DNA from: Candidatus Tectimicrobiota bacterium
Lineage (GTDB): Bacteria > JACPUC01
Assembly: GCA_016192455.1 (NCBI GenBank)
Contig: JACPUC010000010.1
Location: 1 to 64,000 of the forward strand
DNA length: 64,000 bases
Reading direction: 5' to 3'
The position numbers were made by a program, and so were the translations under genes. Below the pieces are notes generated by a model, which saw only the letters and a program-made list of their open reading frames with translations, did not search any database and had not been told where the DNA came from. Below, piece after piece: positions 12,739-59,300 of this stretch (position 1 is the first letter of the stretch; each line of letters opens with the position of its first letter).

Positions 12739-13890
12739 TTACTCCTCCCAGAACTTCGCGGCGCTCTCCTTCTTGCCATAGTCGAAGAGATCATCCACCC
12801 AGACGAAGAACTTGTTGAAGGCCGTCGTCTTCTTGATGGTCCAGCGGGTCATGTCGTGGATTTTGCCGGGCACCTTGTTGAACGGGCAGGCGCGGATGCA
12901 GGTCATGCAGGAGGAGCCGTTCTGCGACCAGAAGCTGAAGCACTTCTCCGCGTCCACCGGCCACTTGGCCATGCCGGGGTTGTTCGAGATGCTGCGCCGG
13001 TCGGTGATGCGGTCGCCGTCCAGGATCGCCTGCGCCGAGCAGGTGCTGGCGCACTTCTTACAGGTCTCGCAGAACGCCTGCACGCCGAGGTTCACCGGCT
13101 TGTCATGGGCCAGGGGCAGGTCGGTGAAGACCTTCGAGAGGCGCACGCGCGGACCGTACTTCTCGGTGATGAGGAGGCCGTTGCGGCCCAGCTCGCCGAG
13201 GCCCGCGTCCACGGCCAGGGGGATGCTGAGGGCGGTGTCGTTGCCGCAGGGGATGGCCTTGTAGCCAAGGCCGCGGAGGAAGTGCCCCATGAGGCCGGCG
13301 CCGTAAGCCATCATCGAGTAGCCGAAGCCGGTGGTGCTGGAGGCAACGAGGGTGGGGGAGGACTTCGTCATCTCGTAGTCCATGGCGTGCGCCATGACGA
13401 TGGCGGAGGTGCACTCCGTCGGCGGCTCGAACGGGGTGTGCTCGCGCGTCCGCAGGTTGAAGATGTGGGAGTAGAACCAGCGCGGATCAACGGCGCAGAT
13501 GCCCACCAGATCGGCGCCGCAGAGTTTCGCCACCTTCTTCACCTGGCGCGCCATGAGGAGCGGGTCCTGCACCTCGATGCGGCCTTCGGGAAGCGAGCTG
13601 GTGAGCTTCGGGTCAACGCTCTGCCACGAAAAGAGGCCGTAGTTCGGTCCCAGGGTGCCGCGCGCGAAGCCGCGTTCGAGGTACCAGCTCGCCTCGTGCA
13701 GGGCGTAGTCCAGGCGCGTGAAGCCGGGGCGCGTCTGCGGCTCATGGATGCCGTAGAACTTCTTGCCGGCGGGAACCAGGGCGTCATCCCAGCGCGCCCG
13801 CTTGAAGGCTTCGTTCTTCTGGTCGAAGCGCTCCAGCGGTTTCTCGATATACTCCTCGTAGGTAGGCTTGTTCGAGTTCGTGCTCACCAT
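12739..13890 (-). CDS. Reductive dehalogenase (RdhA)-like corrinoid/iron-sulfur protein without a Tat signal
   Basis: 383 aa, related to the catalytic RdhA subunit. The core segment IPLAVDAGLGELGRNGLLIT followed by EKYGPRVRLSKVFTDLPL is characteristic, as is YGAGLMGHFLRGLGYKAIP before it. Two [4Fe-4S] sites follow: Cys274, 277, 280, 284 and Cys317, 328, 331, 335 (the second has the long first gap seen in RdhA). In the family these clusters feed electrons to a cobalamin cofactor. There is no twin-arginine leader and no rdhB-like anchor nearby, so the enzyme should be cytoplasmic. Epoxyqueuosine reductase (QueG) shares the fold but not this N-terminal part. The substrate may be halogenated or not; the context (Mo enzymes, LivK, flavoproteins) suggests catabolism. 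Confidence 0.82.
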   Translation of the reverse strand: MVSTNSNKPTYEEYIEKPLERFDQKNEAFKRARWDDALVPAGKKFYGIHEPQTRPGFTRLDYALHEASWYLERGFARGTLGPNYGLFSWQSVDPKLTSSLPEGRIEVQDPLLMARQVKKVAKLCGADLVGICAVDPRWFYSHIFNLRTREHTPFEPPTECTSAIVMAHAMDYEMTKSSPTLVASSTTGFGYSMMAYGAGLMGHFLRGLGYKAIPCGNDTALSIPLAVDAGLGELGRNGLLITEKYGPRVRLSKVFTDLPLAHDKPVNLGVQAFCETCKKCASTCSAQAILDGDRITDRRSISNNPGMAKWPVDAEKCFSFWSQNGSSCMTCIRACPFNKVPGKIHDMTRWTIKKTTAFNKFFVWVDDLFDYGKKESAAKFWEE

Positions 13891-19455: not shown

Positions 19456-20379
19456 CTAGACGGTGCGAAGCCGCGGCGCCTGGGTGAGAGGAAGGTAGAT
19501 GCCCGCCTTGGCAATGCTGTACTTCACGAAGAAATCACCGATCACCGAGGTGAGGCCGAGGATGGCCAGCCCTCCCATCGACAGCGGCGACATCATCCCC
19601 AGGATGCCCATGGCGATCGGCGCCAGCAGGCCGACAACCAAGGTGCCCACGTAGAAGCTGATCGACACCCGCCCATTCAACAGCTCGTGCACCGACTGCC
19701 GGGCCACCGGGTTGGCGCCGGAGATGACGCCGAGATAGAAGAGGATCATCACCAGCGCCGAGGCGCCGATCCAGAGCTCGATGAGCTCCAGGTTGGCGGG
19801 GTGGAAGGTCGGCTGGAAGAGGGCGATGACCACCAGGAGCATGGCGACCCCCCCGCGCAACCCATAGGCGACGTAGAGCGCCGGCAGGATGGGAGAGTTC
19901 CAGAAGGGGATGCCTATCGAGGAGGAGTAGACGAACCCCTTGTAGAGGAGCATCATCACCGCCCCCGCCATGGCCACGACGTTGCCGGCCCAGCTCAACC
20001 AGGAGTTGGCGCCCCACGGCGCGCCCGCCACGACGTGCGGCAGGAGCGCGAAGAAGCCGCCGACGATGAAGAGGTTCAGGCCGATGAAGCCGCGGGCGAT
20101 CCAGGCGGTGCGCGCGTGCCACATGCGCCAGAAACGGCTCGGCCGGCCGAGGAAAAGGAGGTGGGCAAGGCCGCTGAGCAGGGCAAGGACGTAGGCCGCC
20201 AGGGCGCCGCCCACGAACTGGAAGGCCAGCGCAAAGACCCAGGTGCCCGCCGCCACGCCGGAGAGGAAATGGCCGATGATGAGCAGCAGCCCCTGCCGCT
20301 CGATCCATTCCCGCTGCGGGCGATACTGGGCCCGCAGGTCCTGCAAGAGTTGCTCGTAGCGCCCTCTCGTGCTGTCCAC
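19456..20379 (-). CDS. NrfD/PsrC-family membrane subunit of a molybdoenzyme complex
   Basis: 307-aa polytopic membrane protein with about eight hydrophobic segments, beginning EWIERQGLLLIIGHFLSGVA, then LALLSGLAHLLFLGRPSRFWRM, a hallmark segment of NrfD-like quinone-interacting subunits. The start is a GTG at 20379 with GGGGGAG upstream; the longer open frame above it lacks family-like sequence. In PsrABC/DmsABC-type complexes this subunit exchanges electrons with quinone. It follows the ferredoxin subunit by 282 bases and is the only such subunit for two catalytic paralogues. Confidence 0.88.
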   Translation of the reverse strand: MDSTRGRYEQLLQDLRAQYRPQREWIERQGLLLIIGHFLSGVAAGTWVFALAFQFVGGALAAYVLALLSGLAHLLFLGRPSRFWRMWHARTAWIARGFIGLNLFIVGGFFALLPHVVAGAPWGANSWLSWAGNVVAMAGAVMMLLYKGFVYSSSIGIPFWNSPILPALYVAYGLRGGVAMLLVVIALFQPTFHPANLELIELWIGASALVMILFYLGVISGANPVARQSVHELLNGRVSISFYVGTLVVGLLAPIAMGILGMMSPLSMGGLAILGLTSVIGDFFVKYSIAKAGIYLPLTQAPRLRTV

Positions 20380-20661
20380 GATGATCTCCCCCTCTGCCGC
20401 TTGCCAGAAGCGGTTTGCTATCGATCTTTGCCCGCGGTGTGCCACCAACGCCGCCGCGCCTGTCGTGCTGGAGGAACGGCCCCCTTGGGGCGATGCCGCA
20501 TCCAAACCTGCGCGGGACCGGCATCCCACGTGGTCCACACTCCCAAGCTGGCGCGCAGGCGCGGGCGCCAGGGAAGAGTGGAGACCACGCCCGCGCGCCG
20601 CCCTGCCGCGGCGGAGAGAACTCTCCGGCTTGCCTGGCGCAGTTTGGCGCATTGCCGCCGA

Positions 20662-21270
20662 CTACGGTGGCAGGTAGTAAACGCTGGGTCCGGTGCCGAG
20701 TTCCGGGTGCAGCGTGTAGCCGCCGCGCTCCTTGATGAGGTGCGACACCTGGCTGCGCGGATCGTCGAGGTCGCCGAAGTAGCGCGCCACCGTCGGGCAG
20801 TTGGCCACGCAGGCCGGCTCCTTGCCCTGGGCCGTGCGCTCCCGACAGAAGTCGCACTTCATCACCACGCCTTCCTGGTGACGCTGCACGCGCATCTGCT
20901 CGTAGGGCGTGGCGCCGTTGTTCGGGAAGTAGTGGCGGTTCTCGTCGTTGAAGTAGCGCGCCCCGTACGGGCAGGCCATCATGCAGGCGCGGCAGCCGAC
21001 GCAGATGTCGGCGTCCACCGCGACCACCCCGTCGGCCTCCGACTTGGCGGTCGCGCCCGTCGGGCAGACCTCCTCGCAGGGCGGCTCCTCGCAATGGAAG
21101 CAGAGGACCGGCAGGAAGATCATGCTGACGGTCGGGTAGGTGCCCTCCTCGTGCTTCAGGACCCGCGCGAAGAAGACTCCGGGCGGCGTTCCATGTTCAG
21201 CCTTGCAGGAGAGCTGGCAGCCGTAGCAGCCGATACACCGTTTCAGGTCTATGACCATTCCCCATCGCAT
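20662..21270 (-). CDS. Four-cluster ferredoxin subunit (DmsB/PsrB/NrfC type)
   Basis: About 202 aa with four Cys groups for [4Fe-4S] clusters: CIGCYGCQLSC, CFHCEEPPCEEVCP, CVGCRACMMACPYGARYF and CDFCRER...CVANCP. This is the electron-wire subunit between a Mo catalytic subunit and an NrfD subunit. The gene start overlaps the end of the upstream Mo subunit (stop at 21249), a sign of translational coupling. Starts at 21294, 21270 and 21258 are all possible; 21258 (MVIDLKRC) matches the family N-terminus most closely, 21270 is used here as a compromise. Confidence 0.9.
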   Translation of the reverse strand: MRWGMVIDLKRCIGCYGCQLSCKAEHGTPPGVFFARVLKHEEGTYPTVSMIFLPVLCFHCEEPPCEEVCPTGATAKSEADGVVAVDADICVGCRACMMACPYGARYFNDENRHYFPNNGATPYEQMRVQRHQEGVVMKCDFCRERTAQGKEPACVANCPTVARYFGDLDDPRSQVSHLIKERGGYTLHPELGTGPSVYYLPP

Positions 21271-23846
21271 CGCGTCACCCCCACTTTGACGCACAGGTCC
21301 AAATTCAGGTTGGCTGGGCTGCTATGCTCCATGTCAACCTCAAGGAGATCATTGATGAAGACCCCTTTGCCCTTGGCAATCGGCTGGGCCTCGGTCCAGT
21401 GGCCGGCGCAGGCGGCGATGCCCAACCCCTCCGGATGGATCGCCTCGGTCAGGTGGACCCGGCCGCGGATGCGCCGACCCTTCACCGATTCAATCCACAC
21501 CCAATCCCCATCCTTCAGGCCCTTGCGGCGGCCGGCTTCGCTGTGCATGGCAGCGGTGTAGGAGAAGGGATCGAGCTGGGCCGTCTCGTCCAACCATGGG
21601 TTCTCCATGGTGAAGCTGTTGGTATGGATGGCGTCGCGATAGTAGAAGGCGTAGAGGTCATGCTGCTCCGACGTCTCCTCATGGGAGACGCAGGGGAGGA
21701 AGCTCGGCAGCGGTGAGTAGTACTCGCGCGGGATGTGCCAGCCGCGCGGCTCCGCCAGGGCGTTCGCCTGCTCCCATGTGTCGATGAGAAACTCCCAGTA
21801 GATGGGCACGCGCACGTTCTCGAAGTGGCGCCAGTACACCTCCTCCGGTTTCTTCGGCCACTTTATGACGCCGTGCTGCTTGAACCACTCGAGGCCGTGT
21901 TCGGGGCCGAAGTTCGACTTCAACTCCATGTCGCAGATTTCCCGGTACGTGTAGCGCTTGTCGCGCTCCAGGCGAAACGGCGCCGCAAGCCGCATGGAGA
22001 CGTTGTACCCCTCGTTGAGGTCTTCACGGATGCCGATGCGGTCGGCCAGCTCAACGAGCAGCTCGGAGGACTCGCGGCGCTCCCCCGCGGCTTCCACCAC
22101 CGGCTGCTTCACCGGCCAGCACCACTCTCCCATGCCGCCCGGCAGATTGAAGATGAACGGGAAGTTCGGCCGCGAATCGTGCGCCTCCATGTAGCTGCAG
22201 TCGGGCAGCACGATGTCGGCGAACTCGGAGAACTCGGTGATGAAGAGATCGATGGAGATGATGAAGGGGATGCGCTTCAGGGTCTTCGCCACCGTCTCCG
22301 CGTTGCCGACGCTGAGAAGCGAGTTGCAGCCGAAGTTCAGGAGCACCTCCGGCCGGTAGGGGAGGTCGAAGCGCTGCCACATCTCTTCCTGATCGGAGGA
22401 GGCCATGAGGGGCGACATCATGGTCATCGGGTAGAGGTCGATGAGACTCATCGTTTCCGGCATGCGCGGCTCGTGCATGGGGTACGGCAGGTGCGGCGCC
22501 ATCCAGATGCCGGTGATCATCAGCCCGTCTTCGTCGGCGTAGGGGATGTAGTGCGGCCGGCCGGTCTCGGGGTGGCCGTGGCAGGAGGGGTTGAAGCCGA
22601 GGCACCCCCCCACCATGTCCGCCGAGCCGACGAGTTCGTTCAGGAGGTCCACGGCGAGGAAGTTGTAGACCGAGTTCTTGTGTCCCTGGGCGCCGCGGAA
22701 GGCGATGGCCGCCACCGGCCGGTACGGCAGGGTGCGCCCCTGCACCTCGATGGTGCTGCCGATGCGCGCCTCGCGCCCGAACTCCTGCCCGAGGCGGCGG
22801 ATGGTGGCGGCGGGCACGGTGCTGATCGACTCGCCCCACTCCGGCGTCAGCGGCTTGAGGTGGGCCTTGAGCCGCTCGAAGGCCGTCGGGCACTCGAGGC
22901 CGCTGACCGTGTGCACCCCTTCCAGGGCCATCTGCTCCGGCTCGACGGCGTCAAACGGCTTGGCGCTCTTCGTCTGGGTGTCCCAGACGAGCGGCTTGTT
23001 CGTCGCCGCGTCGCGCAGGTAGCGGCCGTCGGGGCCGGTCAGGTACGGGCCGTTCGTCTTCGCTTTCAGGTAGGGGGAGTCCCACAGGCGCAGCTCGTGC
23101 ACCAGGGTGTGGCACATGCCGAGGGCGATCGCCGCGTCGGTCCCGACGCGCAGCGGCACCCACTCGGTGGCCTTGGCGCCGGCGAAGTTGCAGATGGGGT
23201 CAACCACCACCATGTGCATGCCGCGCGCCCGGGCGTCGGCCGCCATGCCCATGTTGGAGCAGGAGGCATGGCCGGCGCTGTGGCCCTTCGAGGCGCCAAA
23301 GTAGACGGCGTAATTGCAATACTGGAAATCCGGCACCACCGACCAGGAAGCGTGCATGATGCCGCTGATGAGGTGGGCGCCGTTGCCGCAGTGCAGGCCG
23401 CCGCCGGCCACCCACGAGTTCGGCGTGCCGAAGGCCCAGCCGAAGACCTGCCAGGGGGTCCGGCTGGAGGTGTTCGTGGTGGTGCGCTGGATGAAGAGCT
23501 TGCGGGGATCATCCTGGCGCACGTGGCGCAGCTTCTCGCCGACGATGTCCAGCGCTTCGTCCCAGGAGATCTCCTCCCACTTCGGGTCGACCCCGATCCC
23601 CTTCTCCGGGTTCGTGCGGCGCAGCGGCTTGTTGAGGCGATGCGGGTCGTAGAGCGTCATGATGCCGCTGATGCCCTTGCCGCACAGCCGCCCCTTGCCC
23701 AAGACGCTCTCCGGGTTCCCTTCGATCTTCGTCAGAACACCGTCCACGCGGTGCCCCAGGATCGAGCAGGTGCCGTAGCACATGCTACAGGCCGAGGGAA
23801 TCCACACGTCCTCGGCCGCAACCGGCGCCTGAGCTGCTACCACCAT
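21249..23846 (-). CDS. Molybdopterin oxidoreductase catalytic subunit, paralogue 2 (no Tat signal)
   Basis: 865-aa Mo/W-bisPGD enzyme of the DMSO reductase family. The N-terminal [4Fe-4S] site is Cys20, 23, 27 and 55 (CSMCYGTC, then GRLCGKG). The likely metal ligand is Cys153 in GGGLHCGNGAHL, by position relative to other family members. Later MGD-binding stretches (GASKGHSAGH, NFGCNSLLSVGNAETV, ADIVLPDCSYMEA) and the C-terminal barrel (DGDWVWIESVKGRRIRGRVHLTE) are present. There is no twin-arginine leader, so the protein should face the cytoplasm, unlike most NrfD partners. It overlaps the ferredoxin gene and is preceded by a MoaD-like gene. I cannot name the substrate. Confidence 0.88.
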   Translation of the reverse strand: MVVAAQAPVAAEDVWIPSACSMCYGTCSILGHRVDGVLTKIEGNPESVLGKGRLCGKGISGIMTLYDPHRLNKPLRRTNPEKGIGVDPKWEEISWDEALDIVGEKLRHVRQDDPRKLFIQRTTTNTSSRTPWQVFGWAFGTPNSWVAGGGLHCGNGAHLISGIMHASWSVVPDFQYCNYAVYFGASKGHSAGHASCSNMGMAADARARGMHMVVVDPICNFAGAKATEWVPLRVGTDAAIALGMCHTLVHELRLWDSPYLKAKTNGPYLTGPDGRYLRDAATNKPLVWDTQTKSAKPFDAVEPEQMALEGVHTVSGLECPTAFERLKAHLKPLTPEWGESISTVPAATIRRLGQEFGREARIGSTIEVQGRTLPYRPVAAIAFRGAQGHKNSVYNFLAVDLLNELVGSADMVGGCLGFNPSCHGHPETGRPHYIPYADEDGLMITGIWMAPHLPYPMHEPRMPETMSLIDLYPMTMMSPLMASSDQEEMWQRFDLPYRPEVLLNFGCNSLLSVGNAETVAKTLKRIPFIISIDLFITEFSEFADIVLPDCSYMEAHDSRPNFPFIFNLPGGMGEWCWPVKQPVVEAAGERRESSELLVELADRIGIREDLNEGYNVSMRLAAPFRLERDKRYTYREICDMELKSNFGPEHGLEWFKQHGVIKWPKKPEEVYWRHFENVRVPIYWEFLIDTWEQANALAEPRGWHIPREYYSPLPSFLPCVSHEETSEQHDLYAFYYRDAIHTNSFTMENPWLDETAQLDPFSYTAAMHSEAGRRKGLKDGDWVWIESVKGRRIRGRVHLTEAIHPEGLGIAACAGHWTEAQPIAKGKGVFINDLLEVDMEHSSPANLNLDLCVKVGVTRCDGEWS

Positions 23847-23931
23847 GCCTTGTTTCCTCCTCCCTTGGGTGAGGCTTCGTTCCGCACCACCTGGACGTCT
23901 TCGGAGCGTGCCTCTCGGTGGTGTTGGAGAG

Positions 23932-24225
23932 CTAGCCCCCTTCCGCCGCCGGTAGGAGCATGAGACTCACTTCCGTCGGCAACCCATTGATTTGCAGCAC
24001 GGTATCGAGATCGGTCACCTCGGTCTCGTTCACGAAGATGCGCAGGTAGGTCTGCAAGGCCCTGGGGTTGCGCATGATGCGCTGCCGGAACTCCGGTCCG
24101 AAGCGCGCCTCCAGGGCGTCGAGGGCATCACGGAGATGCGCGGGCTCGGCCAGCTCGAGCTGCAGGTCGCGCGTGCCGGCCATGGCCCCCAGCATGCCGA
24201 AAAGCTTGATCGTCACGAGCGCCAC
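23932..24225 (-). CDS. MoaD/ThiS-like sulfur carrier protein 2
   Basis: 97-aa ubiquitin-fold protein that ends in the Gly-Gly tail (AAEGG) needed for adenylation and thiocarboxylation. The first strand VTIKLFGMLGAMAG is typical of MoaD. GTG start at 24225 with a long GGAGAGGAGAGG purine tract just upstream. MoaD carries sulfur for molybdopterin. Its place 85 nt before a Mo enzyme gene, and duplication with it, suggest a dedicated supply of pterin for that enzyme. The paralogue at 27028-27408 has an extra insertion. Confidence 0.88.
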   Translation of the reverse strand: MALVTIKLFGMLGAMAGTRDLQLELAEPAHLRDALDALEARFGPEFRQRIMRNPRALQTYLRIFVNETEVTDLDTVLQINGLPTEVSLMLLPAAEGG

Positions 24226-24249
24226 CGGCCTCTCCTCTCCTCTGGTGTG

Positions 24250-24286
24250 CTGTAATAGTTACTGATACTACTGTTTCAGCACGACG
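24250..24286 (-). promoter_or_regulatory. Promoter segment with imperfect inverted repeat before MoaD-like gene 2
   Basis: An AT-rich spot in GC-rich DNA. On the minus strand GTGCTGAAACAG and CTATTACAGCAC form an imperfect inverted repeat around TAGTATCAGTAA. A -10-like TATCAG (24267 down to 24262) lies at the spacing expected for a class II activator site centred at -41.5 (see 24290-24303). An A-rich run lies further upstream near 24310-24330. Confidence 0.4.
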
Positions 24287-24289
24287 AAA

Positions 24290-24303
24290 TTGACGCCGGT
24301 CAA
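24290..24303 (-). promoter_or_regulatory. CRP/FNR-like box TTGAC-N4-GTCAA
   Basis: Perfect palindrome TTGAC GCCG GTCAA centred 71 nt upstream of the MoaD-like gene 2 start. The same half-sites with the same spacer length occur before MoaD-like gene 1 (27496-27509). The layout matches boxes of the CRP/FNR superfamily (FNR itself prefers TTGAT-N4-ATCAA). It suggests activation under low oxygen or by nitrogen oxides, but the regulator is not in this window. Confidence 0.6.
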
Positions 24304-24375
24304 ACTCCACATAATTTTTTCTTTTTTCCGTTGGTTTATGTCTACGCCCCCTTCAGCCGCCGGCGTGCGCGCCGC

Positions 24376-27009
24376 TCACGCCTCCTCGCAGCGCCGCAGC
24401 CGCACCTTCACGCAGAGATCAAGGTTGAGGTTCACCGGGCTGGCGTGGTCCATGTCGATTTCCAGCAGTTGATTGAAAAAGACCCCCTTGCCCCGCGCCA
24501 CCGGCATGCCATCGGTCCAGTGGCCGGCGCAGCCGCCGATCCCCAGCCCTTCAGGATGCATCCCCTGCGTGAGGTGGACGCGCCCACGCACCCGCCGCCC
24601 TTTCACGGTCTCCATCCACACCCAGTCGCCGTCGTGCAGGCCTTTTTTCTTGCCGGTCTCGGCGTTCATGGCGATGTAGTACGAGTTCGGGTCGAGCTGC
24701 GCCGTCTCGTCCAGCCAGGCGTTCTCCTGCGTCAGGCTGTTGGTGTGGATGGTGTCGCGGTAGTAGAAGCCGTAGAGGTCGAACTGCTCATCGCTGCACT
24801 CGTGGCCGGGGCAGGGGAGCCAGGTGGGGAGGGGATCGTAGAACTCCTCCGGCAGGTGCAGGCCGCGCGGCTCGGCCAGCGCTCGCGCCTGATCGCCGAC
24901 GCGCTTCAGGTACTCCCAGTAGATCGGCACCCGCACCTCAACGAAGGGGCGCCAATAGACCTCCTGCGGCTTCTTCGGCCAGGAGAGAACGCCGTGCTCC
25001 TTGAACCACGCGAGATCGTGCCGCGGGCCGAAATTCGACTTCAGGTGCTGGTCGCAGACCTCGGCGAAGCTGTACTGCTGACTGCCCTTCAGGGTGAACG
25101 GCGGCTGCAGCTTCAGCAGGGCGTTCAAGGCCATGTTGATGTCTTCGCTGATGCCGACGCGCTCCGCCAGCTCGAGGAGCACCTGGTTCATCTGCCGGCG
25201 CTCGGCGACCGGCTCGATGAGCGGCTGCCGAACCGCCCAGCACCAGTCGCCCATGCCCCCCGGCAGGTTGAAGATGAAGGGGTAGTTGGGCTTCGAGTCC
25301 AACTGCTCGAGGTAGCTCATGTCGGGCAGGACGATGTCGGCCAGGTCGGAGAGCTCCGTCCTGAAGAGGTCGAAGGAGACGATGAACGGGATGCGCAGCA
25401 GGGTATTGATGACCGTTTCGCTGTTGCCGACGCTCATCACCGAGTTGCAGCCGATATTGATCATCACCTCCGGGCGGTAGGGGAGATCGAAGCGCTGCCA
25501 GCGCTCCTCCTGGTCCGCGGAGGCCATGAGGGGCGAGCTCATCCCCAGCGGGAAGAGCTCGTTGAAGCCCATCGACTTCGGCATGCGGGGGTACTCGAAG
25601 GGGTAGGGCAGGTGGGGGACCATCCAGCTCCCCGTCACCATGAGGCCGTCGGGGCCGGCGTAGGGGACGTAGGCGGGACGCTTTGTCTCCGGGTGGCCGT
25701 GGCAGACCGGGTTGAACCCGAGGCAGCCGCCGACCACGTCCGCCGCCCCGACGAGGTGGTTCAGGAGGTCGATCGCCAGGAAGTTGTAGACGGCGTTGCG
25801 GTGCCCCTCGGAGCCGCGGAAGGCGATCGCCGCCACCGGCCGGTACGGCAGCCGCACCCCGTCGATGACGATGGTGCTCCCCACCCGCGCCTCGCGCCCG
25901 AACTCCTGCCCCAGGCGGCGGATCGTCGCCGCCGGGATGGTGGTGATTGGTTCCGCCCACTCCGGCGTGTGCCGTGCCAGGTGTTCCTTCAGGCAGGCGA
26001 AGGCCGGCCGGCAGCGCACCCCCTGCGCCTCGTACTCCCCTTCCAGCGCCAGCTCGCCCAACGGCTCCTGCCCAAGCTTCTCGGCGTTGTACGGGCGCGC
26101 CCGCCCGGCCGTGGCATCCCACACCAGCGGCTCCTGGGTCTCGGCGTCGCGCACGTAGAGCTTGTCGGGGCCGATCAGGTAGGGCGCGTTCGTCTTGGAG
26201 GCCAGGTAGGGCGCGTCCCAGATGCCGAGCTCGTTGACGAGGACGTGCGCCATCGCCAGGGCCAGCGCCGCATCCGTGCCGACGCGGATCGGCACCCACT
26301 CGTTCGCCTTGGCGGCGGCGAAGTTGCACATCGGGTCCACCACCACCATCTTCATGCCGCGCACCCGCGCGTCCGCCGCCAGCCCCATGTTCGAGCAGGA
26401 GGCGTGCCCGGCGGCGTGCCCCTTCGAGGCGCCGAAGTAGACGGCGTACTGGCAGTGCTCGAAATCCGGCACGATGGACCACGAGGCGTGCATGATGCCG
26501 CTGATGAGATGGGCGCCGTTGCCGCAGTGCAGCCCGCCGCCGGCCACCCACTGGTTCATGGTGCCGAAGGCGTGGCAGAAGGCGTGGCAAATCGGCCCGA
26601 TGGTGGTGTTCGTGGTGGTGCGCTGCAGGAAAAGCTTGCGGGGGTCCTCGGCGCGCACCTTGCGCAGGCGCGCGGCGATCTCGTCGAGGGCCTCGTCCCA
26701 GGTGATCTCTTTCCAGCCGGGGTCGACGCCCACCCCCTTCTTCGGATTGGTGCGCCGCAGGGGGACGTTCACCCGGTTCGGGTCGTAAAGCGTCATGATG
26801 CCGCTGATGCCCTTGGCGCAGAGGCGTCCCTTGCCGATCTCGCTCGCCGGGTTGCCCTCAATCTTCGTCACCACGCCATTGACGCGATGGGCAAGGATCG
26901 AGCAGGTGCCGTAGCACATGCTGCAGGCGGAGGGGATCCAGCGATCCTCGCCGTTGGCCTCGTGGGCGCGCTCCGTCTCCGGAGTTTTCTGTTCAAACGC
27001 CTGGACCAT
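24376..27009 (-). CDS. Molybdopterin oxidoreductase catalytic subunit, paralogue 1 (no Tat signal)
   Basis: 877-aa paralogue of the enzyme at 21249-23846, similar along its whole length. [4Fe-4S] ligands Cys29, 32, 36 and 64; candidate metal ligand Cys162 in GGGLHCGNGAHL. The MGD-binding stretches (GASKGHAAGH, NIGCNSVMSVGNSETV, ADIVLPDMSYLEQ) and the C-terminal barrel are intact. No Tat leader. It has no ferredoxin or NrfD gene of its own: the next gene is MoaD-like 2, 150 bases away. It therefore either shares the downstream ferredoxin/NrfD pair or works with a soluble donor. The MoaD-like gene 1 ends 18 nt before its start. Confidence 0.88.
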   Translation of the reverse strand: MVQAFEQKTPETERAHEANGEDRWIPSACSMCYGTCSILAHRVNGVVTKIEGNPASEIGKGRLCAKGISGIMTLYDPNRVNVPLRRTNPKKGVGVDPGWKEITWDEALDEIAARLRKVRAEDPRKLFLQRTTTNTTIGPICHAFCHAFGTMNQWVAGGGLHCGNGAHLISGIMHASWSIVPDFEHCQYAVYFGASKGHAAGHASCSNMGLAADARVRGMKMVVVDPMCNFAAAKANEWVPIRVGTDAALALAMAHVLVNELGIWDAPYLASKTNAPYLIGPDKLYVRDAETQEPLVWDATAGRARPYNAEKLGQEPLGELALEGEYEAQGVRCRPAFACLKEHLARHTPEWAEPITTIPAATIRRLGQEFGREARVGSTIVIDGVRLPYRPVAAIAFRGSEGHRNAVYNFLAIDLLNHLVGAADVVGGCLGFNPVCHGHPETKRPAYVPYAGPDGLMVTGSWMVPHLPYPFEYPRMPKSMGFNELFPLGMSSPLMASADQEERWQRFDLPYRPEVMINIGCNSVMSVGNSETVINTLLRIPFIVSFDLFRTELSDLADIVLPDMSYLEQLDSKPNYPFIFNLPGGMGDWCWAVRQPLIEPVAERRQMNQVLLELAERVGISEDINMALNALLKLQPPFTLKGSQQYSFAEVCDQHLKSNFGPRHDLAWFKEHGVLSWPKKPQEVYWRPFVEVRVPIYWEYLKRVGDQARALAEPRGLHLPEEFYDPLPTWLPCPGHECSDEQFDLYGFYYRDTIHTNSLTQENAWLDETAQLDPNSYYIAMNAETGKKKGLHDGDWVWMETVKGRRVRGRVHLTQGMHPEGLGIGGCAGHWTDGMPVARGKGVFFNQLLEIDMDHASPVNLNLDLCVKVRLRRCEEA

Positions 27010-27027
27010 GAAGAGACCCTCCTGCGA

Positions 27028-27408
27028 CTAGCCCCCTTCAACCGCCGACATCACCATGAGACCAACGCGGGCCTGCTCCTCCCCACGAGGTTTCGCGCTC
27101 GCCCTGTCGGCTGCGTGAGTACCCTCGCCATCATGGGAAATCGTGCCAACGTCGAGATGAGGCGGCAGCGAGGCGGTAAGCGGGGTATCAAGGTCGTCGA
27201 CGGGAACATCGTCAAGGAAAATGCGCACGTACGTCTGCAGCACGCCGGGCTGCCGGAAGATCGCTTCGCCGAACTTGGCGCCGAAGTGTTCTCCCAGAAC
27301 CTCGAAGAGGTCCCTCAGCCGCGCCCCCTCGGCAAGCTGCAGAGCAACGCTGCGCTCCCCCATCTGCAGACCAAGGATGCCGAACAGCTTCACCGTAACG
27401 TGAATCAA
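27028..27408 (-). CDS. MoaD/ThiS-like sulfur carrier protein 1 with an internal insertion
   Basis: 126 aa with the MoaD first strand (VTVKLFGILGLQMG), a conserved LQTYVRIFLDDVPVDDLDT stretch shared with paralogue 2, and a C-terminal VEGG tail. Compared with paralogue 2 it has about 28-32 extra residues (roughly 80-112, charged and Gly/Ala-rich) between the last loop and the final strand ARVGLMVMS. The reading frame and the functional Gly-Gly are kept, so it is not a simple decay product. First gene of the long minus-strand run. Confidence 0.82.
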   Translation of the reverse strand: MIHVTVKLFGILGLQMGERSVALQLAEGARLRDLFEVLGEHFGAKFGEAIFRQPGVLQTYVRIFLDDVPVDDLDTPLTASLPPHLDVGTISHDGEGTHAADRASAKPRGEEQARVGLMVMSAVEGG

Positions 27409-35792: not shown

Positions 35793-36950
35793 TTACTGAT
35801 TCAGCTTCCTGATCCCCAAAGCGTCGCGGGCGATGATGATGCGCTGGATGTACGAGGTGCCCTCGTAGATTTCCGAGCCCTTGATGTCGCGATAGTAGCG
35901 CTCCACCGGGTTCTCATTCGAGTAGCCGTAGCTGCCGTGCAGGGTGACGGCGTTGGAGGCGGCGCGCGAGGCGGCCTCGCTGGCGTAGAGCTTCGCCATC
36001 GAGGTCTCGCGGGTGTTCTTCTTCCCCGCGTCCTTCTGCGCCGCGGCGCGGTAGGTGAGCAGCCGCGCCGCCTCGGTCTCCACCGCAATATCGGCGATGG
36101 TCTTCTGAATCATCTGGAACTCGGCGATCGGCTGGCCGAACTGCACCCGCGCGTTGGCGAACTTCACGCAGGCGTCGAGGCAGGCCTGGGCCACGCCGAG
36201 GCAGCCCGCCGCCACGCCGAGCCGCCCGTGGTCGAGGGCGCCCATCGCCACCCGGAAGCCGCCGCCGACCTCGCCGAGCACCTGGCTCTTGTGGACGCGG
36301 CAGTTCTGCAGGTTGATCGTGCCGTGGTCCATGGCACGGTGCCCCAGGCTCTTGTACTTCTGGTGCGCGGGGTTGAAGCCGGGGGTGCCCTTCTCGATGA
36401 GGAAGGCGGTGATGCCTCGGTGCCGCTTGCTGCGGTCCACCGAAGCAAAGAGGATGGCCACGTCCGCGAAGTTGGCGTTGGTGATCCAGACCTTCTGGCC
36501 GTTGATGACGAAGTGGTCGCCGTCAGGCGTGGCCACCGTCTCCATGTTGGCCACGTCGGAGCCGGCGTTCTTCTCCGTCAGGCTGTAACAGCCGATGATC
36601 TTGCCCGCCGTCAGCCGGGGGAGGTAGCGCTGCTTCTGCTCCTCCGTCCCCCAGTCGTGGATGCACATGGAGACGAGCCCGAGCTGCACGGCGATGAAAC
36701 CCCGGATCGAGGAGCAAACGCGGCCGATCTCTTCGTAGGTGACGGCGGCCGCCAGGTAGCCCTTGCCGGTGCCGCCGTACTTCTTCGGCAGCGGGTGGCC
36801 GAGGTAGCCCTCCGCCCCGAGCTTCGCCACGATGTCGCTCGGGAAGCGCCCCGTCTCGTCGATCTCCTTCACGATCGGCTCGATTTCGCGTTGCGCAAAG
36901 GCCCGCACCTGCTCCTGGACAGCAAGGTGTTCAGCGCTTAGCTCGAACAT
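35793..36950 (-). CDS. Acyl-CoA dehydrogenase, possibly glutaryl/dicarboxyl-CoA type
   Basis: 385 aa, full-length acyl-CoA dehydrogenase. Canonical segments: CYSLTEKNAGSDVANMET, FVINGQKVWITNANFADVAI, ALHGSYGYS-like stretch and the catalytic Glu363 in IYEGTSYIQR. Arg83 in SSIRGFIAVQLGLV aligns by eye with the Arg that binds the distal carboxylate in glutaryl-CoA dehydrogenase. This favours a dicarboxyl-CoA substrate such as glutaryl- or pimeloyl-CoA, which would suit the BamA-like and 4-HBCR-like neighbours. GAGGGG precedes the ATG. Last gene of the minus-strand aromatic cluster. Confidence 0.88.
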   Translation of the reverse strand: MFELSAEHLAVQEQVRAFAQREIEPIVKEIDETGRFPSDIVAKLGAEGYLGHPLPKKYGGTGKGYLAAAVTYEEIGRVCSSIRGFIAVQLGLVSMCIHDWGTEEQKQRYLPRLTAGKIIGCYSLTEKNAGSDVANMETVATPDGDHFVINGQKVWITNANFADVAILFASVDRSKRHRGITAFLIEKGTPGFNPAHQKYKSLGHRAMDHGTINLQNCRVHKSQVLGEVGGGFRVAMGALDHGRLGVAAGCLGVAQACLDACVKFANARVQFGQPIAEFQMIQKTIADIAVETEAARLLTYRAAAQKDAGKKNTRETSMAKLYASEAASRAASNAVTLHGSYGYSNENPVERYYRDIKGSEIYEGTSYIQRIIIARDALGIRKLNQ

Positions 36951-37024
36951 GGCATCCCCTCACCCCCCGGTGGCGTTGCGGCCCAGCCCTTGCGCCCCGC
37001 CCGGCGGCGCCACGGGCCGGCCTC

Positions 37025-37528
37025 CTAAGAGACTGCGGCCTGGGCGCCCGCAGCCTGAACCTCCTTGGCGGCCGAGAGGACCGCATCGAGGATTTTCACG
37101 TAGCCGGTGCAGCGGCAGAGGTTGCCCGCCAGGGCGTGGCGGATTTCCTCCTCGCTGGCCTCGGGGTTGCGGTCCAGGAGCGCCTTGGCGGTCATGATGA
37201 AGCCCGGCGTGCAAAAACCGCACTGGATGCCGCCGAGGCTCACGAACGCCTGCTGCACGGGGTGCAGCGTCCCCTCCCAGGCCAGCCCCTCGATGGTGGT
37301 GATCTCCTTGCCGCGCACGCTGCGGGCGATGGTGATGCAGGAGAGGTGCGGCACGCCGTCGACGAGCATCGTGCAGGCGCCGCACTCACCGAAGTCGCAG
37401 CTTCGCTTCGACCCCGTCAGCCCGAAATGCTCCCGCACTACCTCCAGGAGCGTCAGATGCGGATAGGCGAACGTCTGCATGAGCTCGCCGTTGATGCGCA
37501 ACTCCAACGGAAGCTTCTTCAACTCCAT
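37025..37528 (-). CDS. [2Fe-2S] small subunit of a xanthine oxidase-family molybdoenzyme
   Basis: 167 aa. The plant-type [2Fe-2S] cluster uses Cys44, 49, 52 and 64 (CDFGECGACTMLVDG); the second uses Cys103, 106, 138 and 140 (CGFCTPGF, CRCTGY). This is the CoxS/HcrC subunit that links the Mo site to the FAD or [4Fe-4S] subunit. It follows the FAD subunit on the same strand with about 127 nt between. No large Mo subunit gene is found beside it: the next gene is an acyl-CoA dehydrogenase. GGAGATAGAG precedes the ATG. Confidence 0.92.
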   Translation of the reverse strand: MELKKLPLELRINGELMQTFAYPHLTLLEVVREHFGLTGSKRSCDFGECGACTMLVDGVPHLSCITIARSVRGKEITTIEGLAWEGTLHPVQQAFVSLGGIQCGFCTPGFIMTAKALLDRNPEASEEEIRHALAGNLCRCTGYVKILDAVLSAAKEVQAAGAQAAVS

Positions 37529-37655
37529 GCTCTATCTCCACACGCGGGGGGCACGGGGCCGCCATCCCCGCGCGGGGTGGGGCGGCGGACCGTCCGCTCT
37601 CGCGTGATTTTTTCAGCACCAACGCGGTCGCCCGGCTCCCCGCCGGGCTAAGCCG

Positions 37656-38654
37656 CTATGCGGCCTCGCGGCGAATCGCCTCGAGCGCCTCGCGGACGAA
37701 CACCTCGATCATATGCTTCTTGTACTTCGTGGAGACAAACCCCGTCTGGATGAAGCGATCGGCGCTGGCGGCCCGGCGGCTTGCCTCCGCAATGGCGTCA
37801 TCGTCGAGCGCCGTGCCGCGCAGCGCCTCCTCGGCCTTCGGCACCCGCAGCGGGTAACTCGTCACCGCGGAGAGGGCGATGCGCGCCTCGGCGCACTTCC
37901 CGCCGCCGTCGCGACGCGCCGCCACCGCCACGCTGAGGAGCGGAAAGTCGATGGAGCCGCGCTGCCGCAGCTTCTTGTAGTCCCCGCGCCAGCCGTTCGC
38001 CGGGGCGGCGGCGTGGGGCAGGAGCACCTCGGTGATGAGCTCGCCGCGCCGCAGCGTGAAGGGCGCCTTGCCGTCGCGCGCGAAGAGCTCGCCGACGCCG
38101 ATGCTACGCACCCCTTGCGGCCCCCTGAGCGTGAGGAGAGCTTCACAGCACATCAGGGCCGGGGCGGTGTCGCCGTGGTAGGTGGCGTAGCACACCTGCG
38201 GCTTGTTGGCGATGTAGCACTGCTCGCCGCAGGCTTTATAGCAGAGCGGTCGAGCTTTGCGCCAGAAGTGCGTCTGGTTGTAGTAGCGGCAGCGGGTGTT
38301 CTGGCAGAGGTTGCCGGCAACCGTCCCCATCATCTGGTGGTGCTCGGCGCCCACCGAGCGCGCCGCCTCGGCGACGAGCGGGTAACGCTCGCGCACCAGC
38401 GGCGAGCCGAGCATCTCGAAGAGCGTCGTGGCGGCGCCGATGGCCACGCCCTCGTCGGTCTCGCGGATGTACTGCAGCTCCCTCAGGTTCTTGACGTCGA
38501 TGACGAGCTTCGGCTGCACGACGCGGTGCTTGATGTTGATGGTGATGTCGGTGCCGCCGCCGAGCATCACCGCTTCCTCGGCGCGCGCCGCGAGCACGGC
38601 GCAGGCATCCTCCAGCGTCTCTGGCTCGGCAAACTCGAACTTCGCCAGCCGCAT
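37656..38654 (-). CDS. FAD subunit with [4Fe-4S] insertion, 4-hydroxybenzoyl-CoA reductase beta type
   Basis: 332 aa from the ATG at 38654 (GGAGAGGAG upstream). CoxM-like FAD fold: EEAVMLGGGTDITINIK, then IGAATTLFEML and TVAGNLCQN. An insertion carries Cys122, 138, 146 and 155 (TRC, RPLC, EQC, QVC). As I recall, 4-hydroxybenzoyl-CoA reductase beta binds its extra [4Fe-4S] cluster with cysteines at these same numbers. That cluster lets the enzyme run as a low-potential reductase. The protein therefore belongs to the HcrB branch, not to ordinary CO or xanthine dehydrogenases. The alpha (Mo) subunit is missing from this locus. Confidence 0.85.
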   Translation of the reverse strand: MRLAKFEFAEPETLEDACAVLAARAEEAVMLGGGTDITINIKHRVVQPKLVIDVKNLRELQYIRETDEGVAIGAATTLFEMLGSPLVRERYPLVAEAARSVGAEHHQMMGTVAGNLCQNTRCRYYNQTHFWRKARPLCYKACGEQCYIANKPQVCYATYHGDTAPALMCCEALLTLRGPQGVRSIGVGELFARDGKAPFTLRRGELITEVLLPHAAAPANGWRGDYKKLRQRGSIDFPLLSVAVAARRDGGGKCAEARIALSAVTSYPLRVPKAEEALRGTALDDDAIAEASRRAASADRFIQTGFVSTKYKKHMIEVFVREALEAIRREAA

Positions 38655-38945
38655 GGAATCTCCTCTCCGCAACGCCGACACGCCGGCGCCCACCCCCGCC
38701 CCCCGGCGCAGCGGGCCCGGCGCTCGGGAGGGGCGGCGGTGATGCCGCCCCGTGCCTCTCTCATGCTCTGCGCTCCGCCTCAGCCATGGCAGGATAACGC
38801 CGAGGTGAAGCTGGATCGATTCACATCTCTTCAAGCATAGATAGGCGGAAGAGAAAAAGCTCCACCTCTTTACGACAGCGCGGCGAGCCCTCGCGCCGCC
38901 GCAGCCTCGGTCCCCCAGCCGACCGCCGCGCGTGCTTGGCGCGCC

Positions 38946-39905
38946 TCAGCCCCCCAGCTTGACGCCGCAGACGCCGCAGAAGGCGAAGTCCGCCGGCAGG
39001 CCCTTGGCGCCGCACTGCGGGCAGAGGTGCTTGTAATGCCCCCAGAGGAACTCCGAGGACTTGCCGTCGCGCGCCCGCTCGCGCACCATGCGGTATTGCG
39101 TGGGGCGCTTCTCGACGAAGGAGGTCATGCCTTCGTACGGCTCGATCGAGGCGTAGTGCAGCGTCAGCCAGTCGCGCGCGTGGCCCACCGTCAGGTTCCA
39201 GCCCAGGTCGCGCCAGAAGTTGGTCTGCTGGCGGGTGTAGCGGGTGCATTCGGGAAACTTGTCGATGAGCTTTTCGCACATCGTGGCGACGGCCTTGTCC
39301 AGCTCCGCCATCGGCACGACCTCGTTCACCAGGCCCCAGGCGAGGGCCGTCTTGGCGTCCACCCACTCGTTCAGCCAGAGAATCTGCCGCGCCCGCCGGT
39401 CGCCGACGATGATCGGCAAGAGCTGCGTGGCGCCCGCCGCGGCGACGCTGCCGACGCTCGTCCCCACCTGGCGGATTTTCGCGTGCTCGGCGGCGATCGC
39501 CAGGTCGCAGCTCAGGTTGATCTCATTGCCGCCGCCCACCACCATGCCGTTGAGGCGCGCGATGGAGGGCTTGCCGAGGTTGCGCAGCAGATCATGCACC
39601 TGGTTGAAGGCGTAGAACCACTTGTAGTACTCGCGCGGCTTCGAGAGGAGGTCGGTGGTATACTCCTTCACGTCGCCGCCGGTGCAGAAGGCTTTCTCGC
39701 CGGCTCCCGTCATGACGACCACGGCCACCCCGTCATCCCAGGAAGCATCCTGCAGCGCCTGCACCATCTCCAGGATGCACTGCCCGTTGAGGGCGTTGTA
39801 GACCTTCTCCCGGTTGATCGTGATGGTGGCCACCCAGTCCTTCTTGGTGTAGAGAATCTCGTCGAAGTTGAAGTCTTCTGCGGGTCGCGGATCAAACTTG
39901 CCCAT
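38946..39905 (-). CDS. Crotonase-family hydrolase/hydratase related to BamA, with C-terminal zinc ribbon
   Basis: 319 aa. Crotonase fold with the oxyanion-hole segments AFCTGGDVKEY and LNGMVVGGGNEINLSCDLAI. These, and the REYYKWFYAFNQVHDLLRNLGKP stretch, resemble 6-oxocyclohex-1-ene-1-carbonyl-CoA hydrolase (BamA/Oah) and, less closely, MenB. It lacks the QYNSYTT motif used to detect BamA and the about 50-residue insertion of true BamA. The C-terminus adds a zinc ribbon with Cys295, 298, 310 and 313. First gene of the minus-strand aromatic cluster; GAGGGAG precedes the ATG. Ring hydrolase or hydratase on an aromatic-derived CoA ester is likely, but the reaction is not proved. Confidence 0.8.
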   Translation of the reverse strand: MGKFDPRPAEDFNFDEILYTKKDWVATITINREKVYNALNGQCILEMVQALQDASWDDGVAVVVMTGAGEKAFCTGGDVKEYTTDLLSKPREYYKWFYAFNQVHDLLRNLGKPSIARLNGMVVGGGNEINLSCDLAIAAEHAKIRQVGTSVGSVAAAGATQLLPIIVGDRRARQILWLNEWVDAKTALAWGLVNEVVPMAELDKAVATMCEKLIDKFPECTRYTRQQTNFWRDLGWNLTVGHARDWLTLHYASIEPYEGMTSFVEKRPTQYRMVRERARDGKSSEFLWGHYKHLCPQCGAKGLPADFAFCGVCGVKLGG

Positions 39906-56330: not shown

Positions 56331-59300
56331 ATGGCAGCACGCAGGCTCATCCCAGGAGTGGCATGGCTATGGGGTTCAGAGCACCGTCGTGGCTCGTCCT
56401 TGCAGCGACGCCCTCCCCTCCCCGGCAGCCGCCGTGCCAGGCCACGCCGCGGGAGCCTTGCCGCGGCAGCGCCCGGAGCCTTTGCCGCGCTCCTCTGGCT
56501 TGGATTGCTCGCCACACTCCCCCTTGGCTTCGCACTCCCGGCGCAGGCGCAGGTGGTCTGCCAGACGGCGAACTTGACCCCTATCAGCCTGGGATCCCGC
56601 GTGCAGGGAAGCTTGACCAGTCGCGATTGCCTCTCCGTCGTCCGCACCACTTTCGCCGACCCGTACATTTTTTCAGGGAGAGCCGGACAGCGAATTACAC
56701 TTGAGCTGACCAGCGCCGACTTCGATGCCTACCTGATCCTGTTCGATTCCACCGGCTCCCCAATCGCGGAAGATGACGACAGCGGTGGGGAGAGGAACTC
56801 CCGCATCCTGGACTTCGTCCTTCCGGAGAGCGGCGACTATATTTTCGAAGCCACCTCCTTCGGCGCCGGCGGCAGCGGTGACTACGCGCTGAGCCTCCAG
56901 CTTACCGGCGAGACCGGCGGCGCGGGCGGCGCGTGCGCAACCGAGCCCCTCGACAGCAACGCCTCCGTTCAAGGCAGTCTCCTCGAGGGCGACTGCCAGT
57001 CGCGACGTCGCGCCGACGCTTTTGCTGATCTCTACACTTTCTTCGCTTCCGCCGGCCAGCGGGTCACCATCGACCTGCAGAGCAGCAGCTTCGACGCTTT
57101 CCTTCTCCTCGTCAACGAGGGGGGGGAGACCATCGCCTCGAACGACGACCGCGCCAGCGGCGACCGCAACGCGCTCATCACTGACTTCGAGATCCCCGCC
57201 GACGGCGCCTACACCATCGAGGTCACCTCCTTCGGCGCCGTCGGCGCCGGTGACTTCTTCGGCACCGGCGGCACCGGCGACTATCAGCTTGCGTTGCAGT
57301 CAGGCGAAGCACCGCCAGCCGCGACTGAGCCGCTTAGCATCTCGCCCGAGTCGACGACGGCGCGCCCCGGCGCCACCGTCACCTTCACCGCCAGCGGCAG
57401 CGACGTGGACCAGAACCCAGGCGGCATCATCTGGTCCGCTCCGGGCGCCAGCTTCGTGGGGTCGAGCGTGGGCGTGGCGCAGGTTACCTGGCTGGCCCCC
57501 AGCCGCGCCGGCAGCTTCGAGGTCGTCGTCACCAGCCAGGAGGGCGGGCGCGCCGTGGCGCAGGTGACCGTCGAGGGGACTGTGGTTCCGCCGACTACGA
57601 CGCTGAGTATCGCGCCGCAGACGGCAACGACCGCGCCCGGGCAGGTGCTCGCCTTCGTCGCCAGCGGCAGCGCCGTGACGCAGAACCTGCGCGGCATCAT
57701 CTGGTCCGCGCCGGGGGCCAGCTTCGAGGGCGCCAGCGTGGGGGTGTCCAGCGTGCGCTGGCGCGCCCCGAGCCAGGCAGGTCAGTACCAGGTCATCGTC
57801 ACCAGCGCGGACGGCCGGCGCGCCGCGGCGAGCGTCACCGTGGGGGCGGCGCCGACGCCCACGCCCACGCAACCCTCCGGACCGCCGGCGGACACCTCCA
57901 CCACCCGTATTGACCCCGCCGGCGATACCGACAACTTCAGCATGGACGTCGATCCGAATGAGGAGAGGGTGAGCGTCTTCATCGTCGGTGTCGACGACGC
58001 CCTCGACCCCAACCTCACCCTCCTTGGCCGCAGCGGCGAGACCGCGGTGTTCCGCGACGATCTGCGCCGGGGGACCGGCGAAGAGCGCCTCATCGGCACC
58101 CGCATCGGCGCCGTCAGCGCGGATGGCCTCGACTCCTTCATCGAAGGCCCCCCGACGACGAATACCTTCCGCATCGGCGGCTTCGGGTCAACGGTGGGCT
58201 CCTACCTCATCATGGTGGGGGGGCGGCGCATTGACCCGCAAGACGAAGCTGACCTCTTTGTCCTCGAAGGCGAGCTGCAGGGAACCTCGATCTGGGTTGC
58301 CGCCGTGGCGGTCGATACGGGCCTCGACCTGCTGATCGAAACCGTCGACGCGAACGGTCAGGTGGTGCGCTTCGCCGACGGCGACCCGGTCATGAACGAC
58401 GATAACGGCAGCGGGCCGGGCGGCACCACCGCCTCGCTGCAGAACTTCAGCGTCGTGGGCCGGCAGGCGCAGTCGCTCGATCCGCTCCTTACCCTGGTGG
58501 CCAGCGGCGGCGCCGAGCGGCGCTTCCGCGTGCGCAGCTTCAACGGCCAGAGCAGCGGTCGCTACCTCCTGGTCATCGGCAGCCCGCAGGTCTTTGGCGA
58601 GGGCGGCGGAGGGCCCACGCCGGGTGCCTCTTCTCTCGCCATCGATCCCAGCGAAGCGAGCATCCAACCTGGCGAGACGCTCGTCTTCACCGCCTTGGGC
58701 GGCGCCGCCGAGTTCAACGTCGGCGGCCTGGTCTGGTCCGCCTCGGCGGGAACCTTCACCACCTCGGTCTTCGGCACGGCCTCCGCCTCTTGGCAGGCGC
58801 CGCGGCTTCCCGGCGTCTACCGCGTGCAAGTGACGAGCAGCGACGGGGGCCAGGCGACCGCCGAGGTGCGCGTGGAAGGCGTGGCGCCGAGGCAGCAGTT
58901 CCAGTTTCTCTCCATCACCCCGAATGCCCCGGTGCTGCAAATGATCGGCGATACCGTGCAGCTTCGGGCGCTGGGATTCGGCCCCCTGGGAACGGAAGAC
59001 ATCACCGAGCAGGTGGAGTGGGCCGCGGCCAATGGGGCCGTGGCGAGCGTTTCGGACACCGGGCTGGTGACCGCCCAGGCCCGCGGTCTCACCCGGGTGA
59101 CGGCCTCGTTCGGCAGCCTCGTCGGCAGCGCCACAGTCAGCGTCCAGGGCACCGGGGCCGTCCAGATAGGCCGGCTCGTCGTCACCCCCTCGACCTTCAC
59201 CCTGCGCTCCGTCGGGGCGACGGTGCAGCTCAGCGCCGTGCTGGTGCAGGCGAGCGGCCGCGCGGACGTCAGCTCCTCGGCAACCTGGAACTCGAGCAAC

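What the first reader, a model, noticed from the sequence alone, without database searches (positions are those of the whole stretch)
35793..39905. 4-Hydroxybenzoyl-CoA reductase-type beta and gamma subunits without an alpha subunit
The FAD subunit has the four insertion cysteines at 122, 138, 146 and 155, the signature of the HcrB branch, and the [2Fe-2S] subunit is complete. The Mo large subunit is missing where it would be expected, and an acyl-CoA dehydrogenase with a glutaryl-type Arg and a BamA-like protein flank the pair. Inferred: part of an anaerobic benzoyl-CoA-like pathway, with the alpha subunit elsewhere, or a pair reused to pass electrons to another enzyme.
Basis: partly seen in the sequence, partly recalled or inferred. 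Interest (0 to 1): 0.7.

Follow-up and report, generated by a model that had tools for sequence, protein, structure and literature searches.

The report
Dehydroxylase electron subunits without catalytic partner
A bacterium keeps two electron-carrying subunits of a 4-hydroxybenzoyl-CoA-reductase-like enzyme beside benzoate-breakdown-type genes, while the only matching unattached molybdenum (catalytic) subunit lies on another contig, so this looks like a known enzyme with its genes split apart rather than a broken one.

Summary
In a gap-free contig interior, four same-strand genes run crotonase, HcrB-type FAD subunit (Cys122/138/146/155), HcrC-type [2Fe-2S] subunit, acyl-CoA dehydrogenase. No molybdenum subunit or remnant lies among them. 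The pair is not decaying: 31/32 and 34/38 family-invariant residues are kept.

The genome has 32 molybdenum subunits, 11 FAD subunits and 13 [2Fe-2S] domains. The other ten FAD subunits each sit in a complete set; only this pair lacks a molybdenum subunit. Twenty molybdenum subunits have no FAD or [2Fe-2S] gene beside them. Exactly one of these, on contig C23, falls in the clade of molybdenum subunits that accompany cluster-bearing FAD subunits (support 100/99) and keeps the GPFGAKE motif of solved Thauera HCR; no other lone one has it.

A distant genome (G031) carries 66%-identical copies of the crotonase and dehydrogenase inside a bzd-type benzoyl-CoA reductase island, and this genome has its own bcr-like operon.

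Best reading: beta and gamma subunits of an HCR-like reductive dehydroxylase, alpha encoded elsewhere (probably C23), in a benzoyl-CoA-like pathway. Partnership, substrate and electron flow are inferred. Alpha-free electron transfer, or one pair shared by several lone alphas, is not excluded; a mirror-tree test was uninformative.

The parts
38946..39905 (-). Crotonase-superfamily protein, 319 aa, near BadI/MenB/Oah, with a C-terminal CxxC...CxxC zinc-ribbon-like tail; probable ring-cleaving hydrolase or hydratase of a (dearomatised) cyclic acyl-CoA
   Evidence: badI 182, menB 180, oah 159 bits, all below cut-off; 66% identical orthologue in G031 bzd benzoyl-CoA reductase island
37656..38654 (-). 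HcrB-type FAD subunit, 332 aa, with [4Fe-4S] insertion cysteines 122, 138, 146, 155
   Evidence: 1rm6_B E 8e-61; TIGR03195 284 bits, cut-off 405; cysteine alignment and tree; 31/32 invariant columns kept
37025..37528 (-). HcrC-type [2Fe-2S] subunit, 167 aa, both clusters' ligands present
   Evidence: TIGR03193 188 bits, cut-off 258; motifs; 34/38 invariant columns kept
35793..36950 (-). Acyl-CoA dehydrogenase, 385 aa, glutaryl-CoA dehydrogenase-like Arg83 and catalytic Glu
   Evidence: NF045552 384 bits, cut-off 470; 3mpi alignment; 66% identical orthologue near the crotonase orthologue in G031
38655..38945 (.). 291-bp interval between crotonase and FAD subunit, where alpha would stand in the alpha-FAD-FeS gene order of the C22 set; no alpha remnant
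   Evidence: tblastn of 32 alphas, no credible hit; gap sizes

Best explanation
The pair is the electron-input half (beta: FAD plus [4Fe-4S]; gamma: two [2Fe-2S]) of a 4-hydroxybenzoyl-CoA-reductase-like reductive dehydroxylase whose molybdenum (alpha) subunit is encoded elsewhere, most likely the lone HCR-type alpha at G000:C23:106925-109360. A low-potential donor such as ferredoxin would give electrons to the [4Fe-4S] cluster, then FAD, then the two [2Fe-2S] clusters, then molybdenum, which removes a ring hydroxyl from an aromatic acyl-CoA. The flanking crotonase and glutaryl-type dehydrogenase would act downstream on ring opening and the resulting dicarboxylyl-CoA. Shown: gene content, cofactor ligands, absence of alpha and of an assembly gap, conservation of the pair, existence and class of the lone alpha, linkage of the crotonase and dehydrogenase orthologues to a benzoyl-CoA reductase in another genome. 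Inferred: assembly with the C23 alpha, direction of electron flow, substrate.
For: Ligands and fold family. Retained constraint on both subunits. Own-genome census: 32 alphas, 11 FAD, 13 Fer2_2; the 10 other FADs are all in complete sets. Leaving out the divergent Tat-type C2 set, there are 4 HcrB-type FADs (C9, C30, C31, C22) and 4 alphas with the GPxGAKE motif (C30, C31, C22, C23), so one orphan pair and one orphan alpha remain. Alpha tree: of 9 lone alphas included, only C23 is in the 27-row clade holding 25 alphas of [4Fe-4S]-bearing sets (100/99); in the all-32 tree C23 groups 100/99 with C22, C30, C31. C23 aligns to 1rm6_A (E 7e-124) with an identical GPFGAKE stretch and the catalytic-loop Glu, while the other lone alphas have another residue at the HCR-specific Glu. 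Island in G031: crotonase 66%, dehydrogenase 66%, Mo reductase 49-50%, EtfA/B 38-39% shared with this window, beside BzdN, BzdO, BzdQ above cut-offs. Own BcrB/BcrC-like genes on C31 near a complete HCR-type set.
Against: Every family score (alpha, beta, gamma, crotonase, dehydrogenase) is below its equivalog cut-off, so substrates are unproven. C23 sits on a long branch, unresolved with x_L132, whose alpha has the same motif but whose FAD subunit lacks the [4Fe-4S] insert. Mirror-tree gave no signal (r 0.05, rank 2 of 20; calibration poor). In G031 the crotonase and dehydrogenase have no HcrBC pair beside them. The C23 alpha has its own neighbouring 2[4Fe-4S] protein as a possible other partner. 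The genome is 88% complete, so another unlinked alpha could be missing.
Confidence: 0.6

Rival explanations
1. The pair has been recruited as an alpha-free electron-transfer module (ferredoxin to [4Fe-4S]/FAD/[2Fe-2S]) for the neighbouring acyl-CoA dehydrogenase, an Etf or another reductase.
For: No linked alpha; the pair is sandwiched between crotonase and dehydrogenase. Stand-alone HcrB-type FAD genes without alpha or gamma occur in L043, L135 and L142, so such subunits can lie apart from alpha.
Against: Gamma keeps both cluster motifs including the QCGFCTPG and CRCTGY stretches typical of alpha-docked subunits, and 34/38 invariant columns. A lone alpha of matching class exists. The dehydrogenase orthologue in G031 sits next to EtfAB without the pair.
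Confidence: 0.15
2. The pair is a shared electron module that serves several of the 20 lone molybdenum subunits of this genome in trans.
For: 20 of 32 alphas lack neighbouring FAD or [2Fe-2S] genes and this is the only unattached FAD + [2Fe-2S] pair.
Against: Lone alphas span very different clades, and the FAD subunit is of the reductive HCR type; the lone alphas other than C23 lack the HCR-type Glu. No interface data.
Confidence: 0.12
3. Remnant of an HCR operon that lost alpha by deletion; the pair is on its way out.
For: All other HcrB-type FAD subunits in this genome have alpha beside them; so do 18 of 22 related loci elsewhere.
Against: Intact reading frames, all cofactor ligands, ribosome-binding-like sequences before starts, near-complete conservation, no alpha remnant.
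Confidence: 0.08

Closest known systems
4-hydroxybenzoyl-CoA reductase HcrABC of Thauera aromatica (PDB 1rm6/1sb3)
   Same: FAD subunit with the four [4Fe-4S] cysteines at the same places, complete [2Fe-2S] subunit; the lone alpha shares GPFGAKE and the catalytic-loop Glu
   Different: Alpha is not in the operon; all subunit scores are below equivalog cut-offs; substrate unknown
Urolithin C dehydroxylase Ucdh of Enterocloster bolteae (PMC12771579)
   Same: Xanthine-oxidase-family reductive dehydroxylase, 4-HBCR being its closest characterised relative according to the paper
   Different: Its three subunits are encoded in one gene cluster; not compared by sequence here
bzd-type benzoyl-CoA reductase island (BzdNOQ), here in G031:C149
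   Same: Carries 66% identical crotonase and acyl-CoA dehydrogenase
   Different: No HcrBC pair inside the fetched island; the window has no benzoyl-CoA reductase genes found, the own bcr-like operon lies on C31
PaoABC periplasmic aldehyde oxidoreductase of E. coli
   Same: Heterotrimer with HCR-like architecture; its FAD subunit is among the PDB matches
   Different: Weaker match than HCR (E 1.5e-23 against 8e-61); periplasmic and oxidative, from literature

Membership tests
4-hydroxybenzoyl-CoA reductase (HcrABC) | FAD subunit with four-cysteine [4Fe-4S] insert | tested here: met
   Cys122/138/146/155 aligned with 1rm6_B and with the insert-bearing homologues
4-hydroxybenzoyl-CoA reductase (HcrABC) | [2Fe-2S] subunit with two clusters | tested here: met
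   Motifs intact
4-hydroxybenzoyl-CoA reductase (HcrABC) | Molybdenum alpha subunit in the same operon | tested here: not met
   None on contig C9; no remnant
4-hydroxybenzoyl-CoA reductase (HcrABC) | An HCR-type alpha subunit available in the genome beyond those in complete sets | tested here: met
   Lone alpha C23:106925-109360 with GPFGAKE, best solved match 1rm6_A
4-hydroxybenzoyl-CoA reductase (HcrABC) | Scores above the NCBIfam equivalog cut-offs TIGR03193/03194/03195 | tested here: not met
   188/258, 641/995, 284/405 bits: related, not shown to be the same enzyme
4-hydroxybenzoyl-CoA reductase (HcrABC) | Ferredoxin-driven dehydroxylation of 4-hydroxybenzoyl-CoA | not testable with these tools
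   Needs enzyme assay
BamA/Oah 6-oxocyclohex-1-ene-1-carbonyl-CoA hydrolase | Score above TIGR03200 cut-off | tested here: not met
   159 of 464 bits; badI and menB score slightly higher
Benzoyl-CoA-type pathway gene | Linkage of orthologues to benzoyl-CoA reductase genes | tested here: met
   G031:C149 crotonase and dehydrogenase orthologues beside BzdN, BzdO, BzdQ; crotonase orthologue also near benzoyl-CoA-reductase-like genes in G374:C57 (judged by eye)
Glutaryl-CoA dehydrogenase (non-decarboxylating, Desulfococcus type) | Substrate-carboxylate Arg and catalytic Glu | tested here: met
   Arg83 and Glu aligned with 3mpi
Glutaryl-CoA dehydrogenase (non-decarboxylating, Desulfococcus type) | Score above NF045552 equivalog cut-off | tested here: not met
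   384 of 470 bits

The most novel reading that the evidence does not exclude
This genome runs a modular molybdenum-hydroxylase system in which one unattached FAD/[4Fe-4S] + [2Fe-2S] pair feeds electrons in trans to several of its 20 lone molybdenum subunits, swapping catalytic heads on one electron module.
Probability: 0.12. Interest if true: 0.7.

Novelty: new variant of a known kind. Interest (0 to 1): 0.4.

Why it matters
HCR-type enzymes are known as three-gene operons; a split arrangement would show that their electron-input module can be encoded, and perhaps shared, away from the catalytic subunit. It would also give a concrete, testable partner assignment in a lineage without held relatives whose genome has 32 molybdenum subunits but only 11 FAD subunits, so the question of how the 20 lone ones exchange electrons becomes directly testable.

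Tried and rejected
Assembly gap or alpha remnant at the locus: rejected. Orthologous orphan pair in other genomes: none found; the one named-genome scan and 386 diverse genomes gave only 31-41% identical HcrB-type relatives, 18 of 22 with alpha adjacent, two with a stand-alone FAD gene, two uncertain because the contig ends. Mirror-tree correlation of C9 FAD with the 20 lone alphas: not informative, since true partners of most linked sets also failed to rank first. [2Fe-2S] subunit tree: unresolved. Plasmid collection: no match at the thresholds set. Class-level relatives: none held, and the nearest genomes offered share only the domain, so close synteny could not be compared. Papers on unlinked molybdenum-hydroxylase subunits: three full-text searches found none on point. 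Structure prediction was not run: monomers cannot decide partnership.

Full report
WHAT IS THERE. The four genes 39905 to 35793 on the minus strand are real coding genes with ribosome-binding-like sequences and gaps of 291, 127 and 74 bases: crotonase, FAD subunit, [2Fe-2S] subunit, acyl-CoA dehydrogenase. The FAD subunit starts at ATG 38654 (332 aa). Its best solved relative is HCR beta 1rm6_B (E 8e-61), and all four insertion cysteines (122, 138, 146, 155) are in register. The insert is absent from six of the genome's other FAD subunits and present in four. The [2Fe-2S] subunit has all eight cluster cysteines. The dehydrogenase carries Arg83 at the place of the glutaryl-CoA dehydrogenase Arg of 3mpi, and the catalytic Glu. 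The crotonase lies near BadI, MenB and Oah/BamA but is none of these by score, and has an extra CxxC...CxxC tail. The window has no N and lies in a 159-kb contig; tblastn with all 32 alphas finds no remnant.

GENOME CENSUS. The genome (4.46 Mb, 31 contigs, 88% complete) has 32 molybdenum large subunits, 11 FAD subunits and 13 [2Fe-2S] domains. By position, ten FAD subunits are each within a few kilobases of an alpha and a [2Fe-2S] gene; two alphas are fused to [2Fe-2S] domains; twenty alphas have neither partner nearby. The C9 pair is the only FAD + [2Fe-2S] pair without alpha. Splitting is thus not peculiar to this locus, although here it is the electron-transfer half that stands alone.

WHICH ALPHA. 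A tree of all 32 alphas puts one lone alpha, C23:106925-109360 (L077:6925-9360), with the alphas of three HcrB-type sets (100/99). In a tree of 42 alphas that adds external ones whose FAD subunits were typed, the clade that holds 25 of 26 alphas from [4Fe-4S]-bearing sets also holds C23 and one alpha from a set without the insert, and none of the eight other lone alphas included (100/99). The same split is visible in sequence: nearly all HCR-type alphas have GPxGAKE in the catalytic loop, most others have GxKGxGE or similar; C23 has GPFGAKEVGEG, and solved HCR alpha 1rm6_A has GPFGAKEASEG. All nineteen other lone alphas have a different residue at the HCR-specific Glu. Counting HCR-type parts, leaving out the divergent Tat-leader C2 set, gives four FAD subunits and four alphas, with exactly one of each unattached. 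This is circumstantial: C23 is on a long branch, its unresolved neighbours include an alpha whose FAD subunit lacks the insert (L132), and a mirror-tree test had no power.

IS THE PAIR FUNCTIONAL. Of the columns invariant among HcrB-type FAD subunits the orphan keeps 31/32; of those invariant in the [2Fe-2S] subunit it keeps 34/38 (0.89), the lowest of 25 but next to linked members at 0.90. Relaxed decay is unlikely.

PATHWAY. Orthologues of the crotonase at 50-66% identity occur in 7 of 386 diverse genomes. In G031 the 66% orthologue is present twice and stands with a 66% identical acyl-CoA dehydrogenase, EtfAB, a FixC-like protein, a molybdenum reductase with FeS and membrane subunits (reductase and FeS protein 49-51% identical to window genes between 20662 and 27009), and BzdN, BzdO and BzdQ well above cut-offs. 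In G374 the crotonase orthologue is near benzoyl-CoA-reductase-like genes (by eye) and a Had-like dehydrogenase. In other genomes (L099, L100, L101) it sits with further crotonases, so the family is not exclusive to anaerobic pathways. The own genome has BcrC-like (362 of 421 bits) and BcrB-like (402 of 487 bits) proteins with two activases on C31, about 6 kb from a complete HCR-type set, and a second BcrB-like gene on C22 near another HCR-type set.

MECHANISM. By analogy with HCR (Unciuleac et al. 2004, cited in PMC12771579 and PMC3958847; details from general knowledge) ferredoxin electrons would enter at the [4Fe-4S] cluster and run through FAD and two [2Fe-2S] clusters to molybdenum. A second reductive dehydroxylase of the xanthine oxidase family, Ucdh, has 4-HBCR as its closest characterised relative (PMC12771579), so HCR-like enzymes need not act on 4-hydroxybenzoyl-CoA itself.

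VERDICT. A split, HCR-like reductive dehydroxylase is the best reading (0.6); an alpha-free electron module (0.15), a shared module for several lone alphas (0.12) and a decaying remnant (0.08) remain. It is a new variant in gene arrangement of a known enzyme kind.

Noticed in passing
whole genome G000: Twenty molybdenum large subunits of the xanthine oxidase family stand without neighbouring FAD or [2Fe-2S] genes; their electron partners are unknown.
   Followed up: partly
L067:4320-5735, L065:7058-8479, L049:2412-3809, L049:9108-10550, L052:4130-5713, L068:11474-12838: UbiD-type decarboxylases lie directly beside several lone alphas (C1:233934, C18:4501, C30:3991) and beside or near two HcrB-type sets (C30, C2) and another lone alpha (C1:194124).
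   Followed up: partly
L052:8469-12403 (C2 set): A divergent HcrB-type set whose [2Fe-2S] subunit has a twin-arginine-like leader (MSRRSFLKGMG), next to a ferredoxin-like protein that also seems to have such a leader: possibly a periplasmic version.
   Followed up: no
L043, L135 (G086), L142 (G328): Stand-alone HcrB-type FAD genes with neither alpha nor [2Fe-2S] gene detectable in the stretches held.
   Followed up: no
L077:10057-10938 and window 12739-13890: The 2[4Fe-4S] protein (weakly reductive-dehalogenase-like) beside the lone C23 alpha has a 32% identical homologue in this window.
   Followed up: partly
window 19456-27393: Two PhsA-like molybdopterin oxidoreductases in tandem, each with a small protein upstream that looks ubiquitin-fold-like by eye, plus FeS and NrfD-like subunits; 49-51% identical relatives of the oxidoreductases and FeS protein sit in the G031 benzoyl-CoA reductase island.
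   Followed up: partly
window 56331-62786: A very long open reading frame of 2151 aa, not examined.
   Followed up: no
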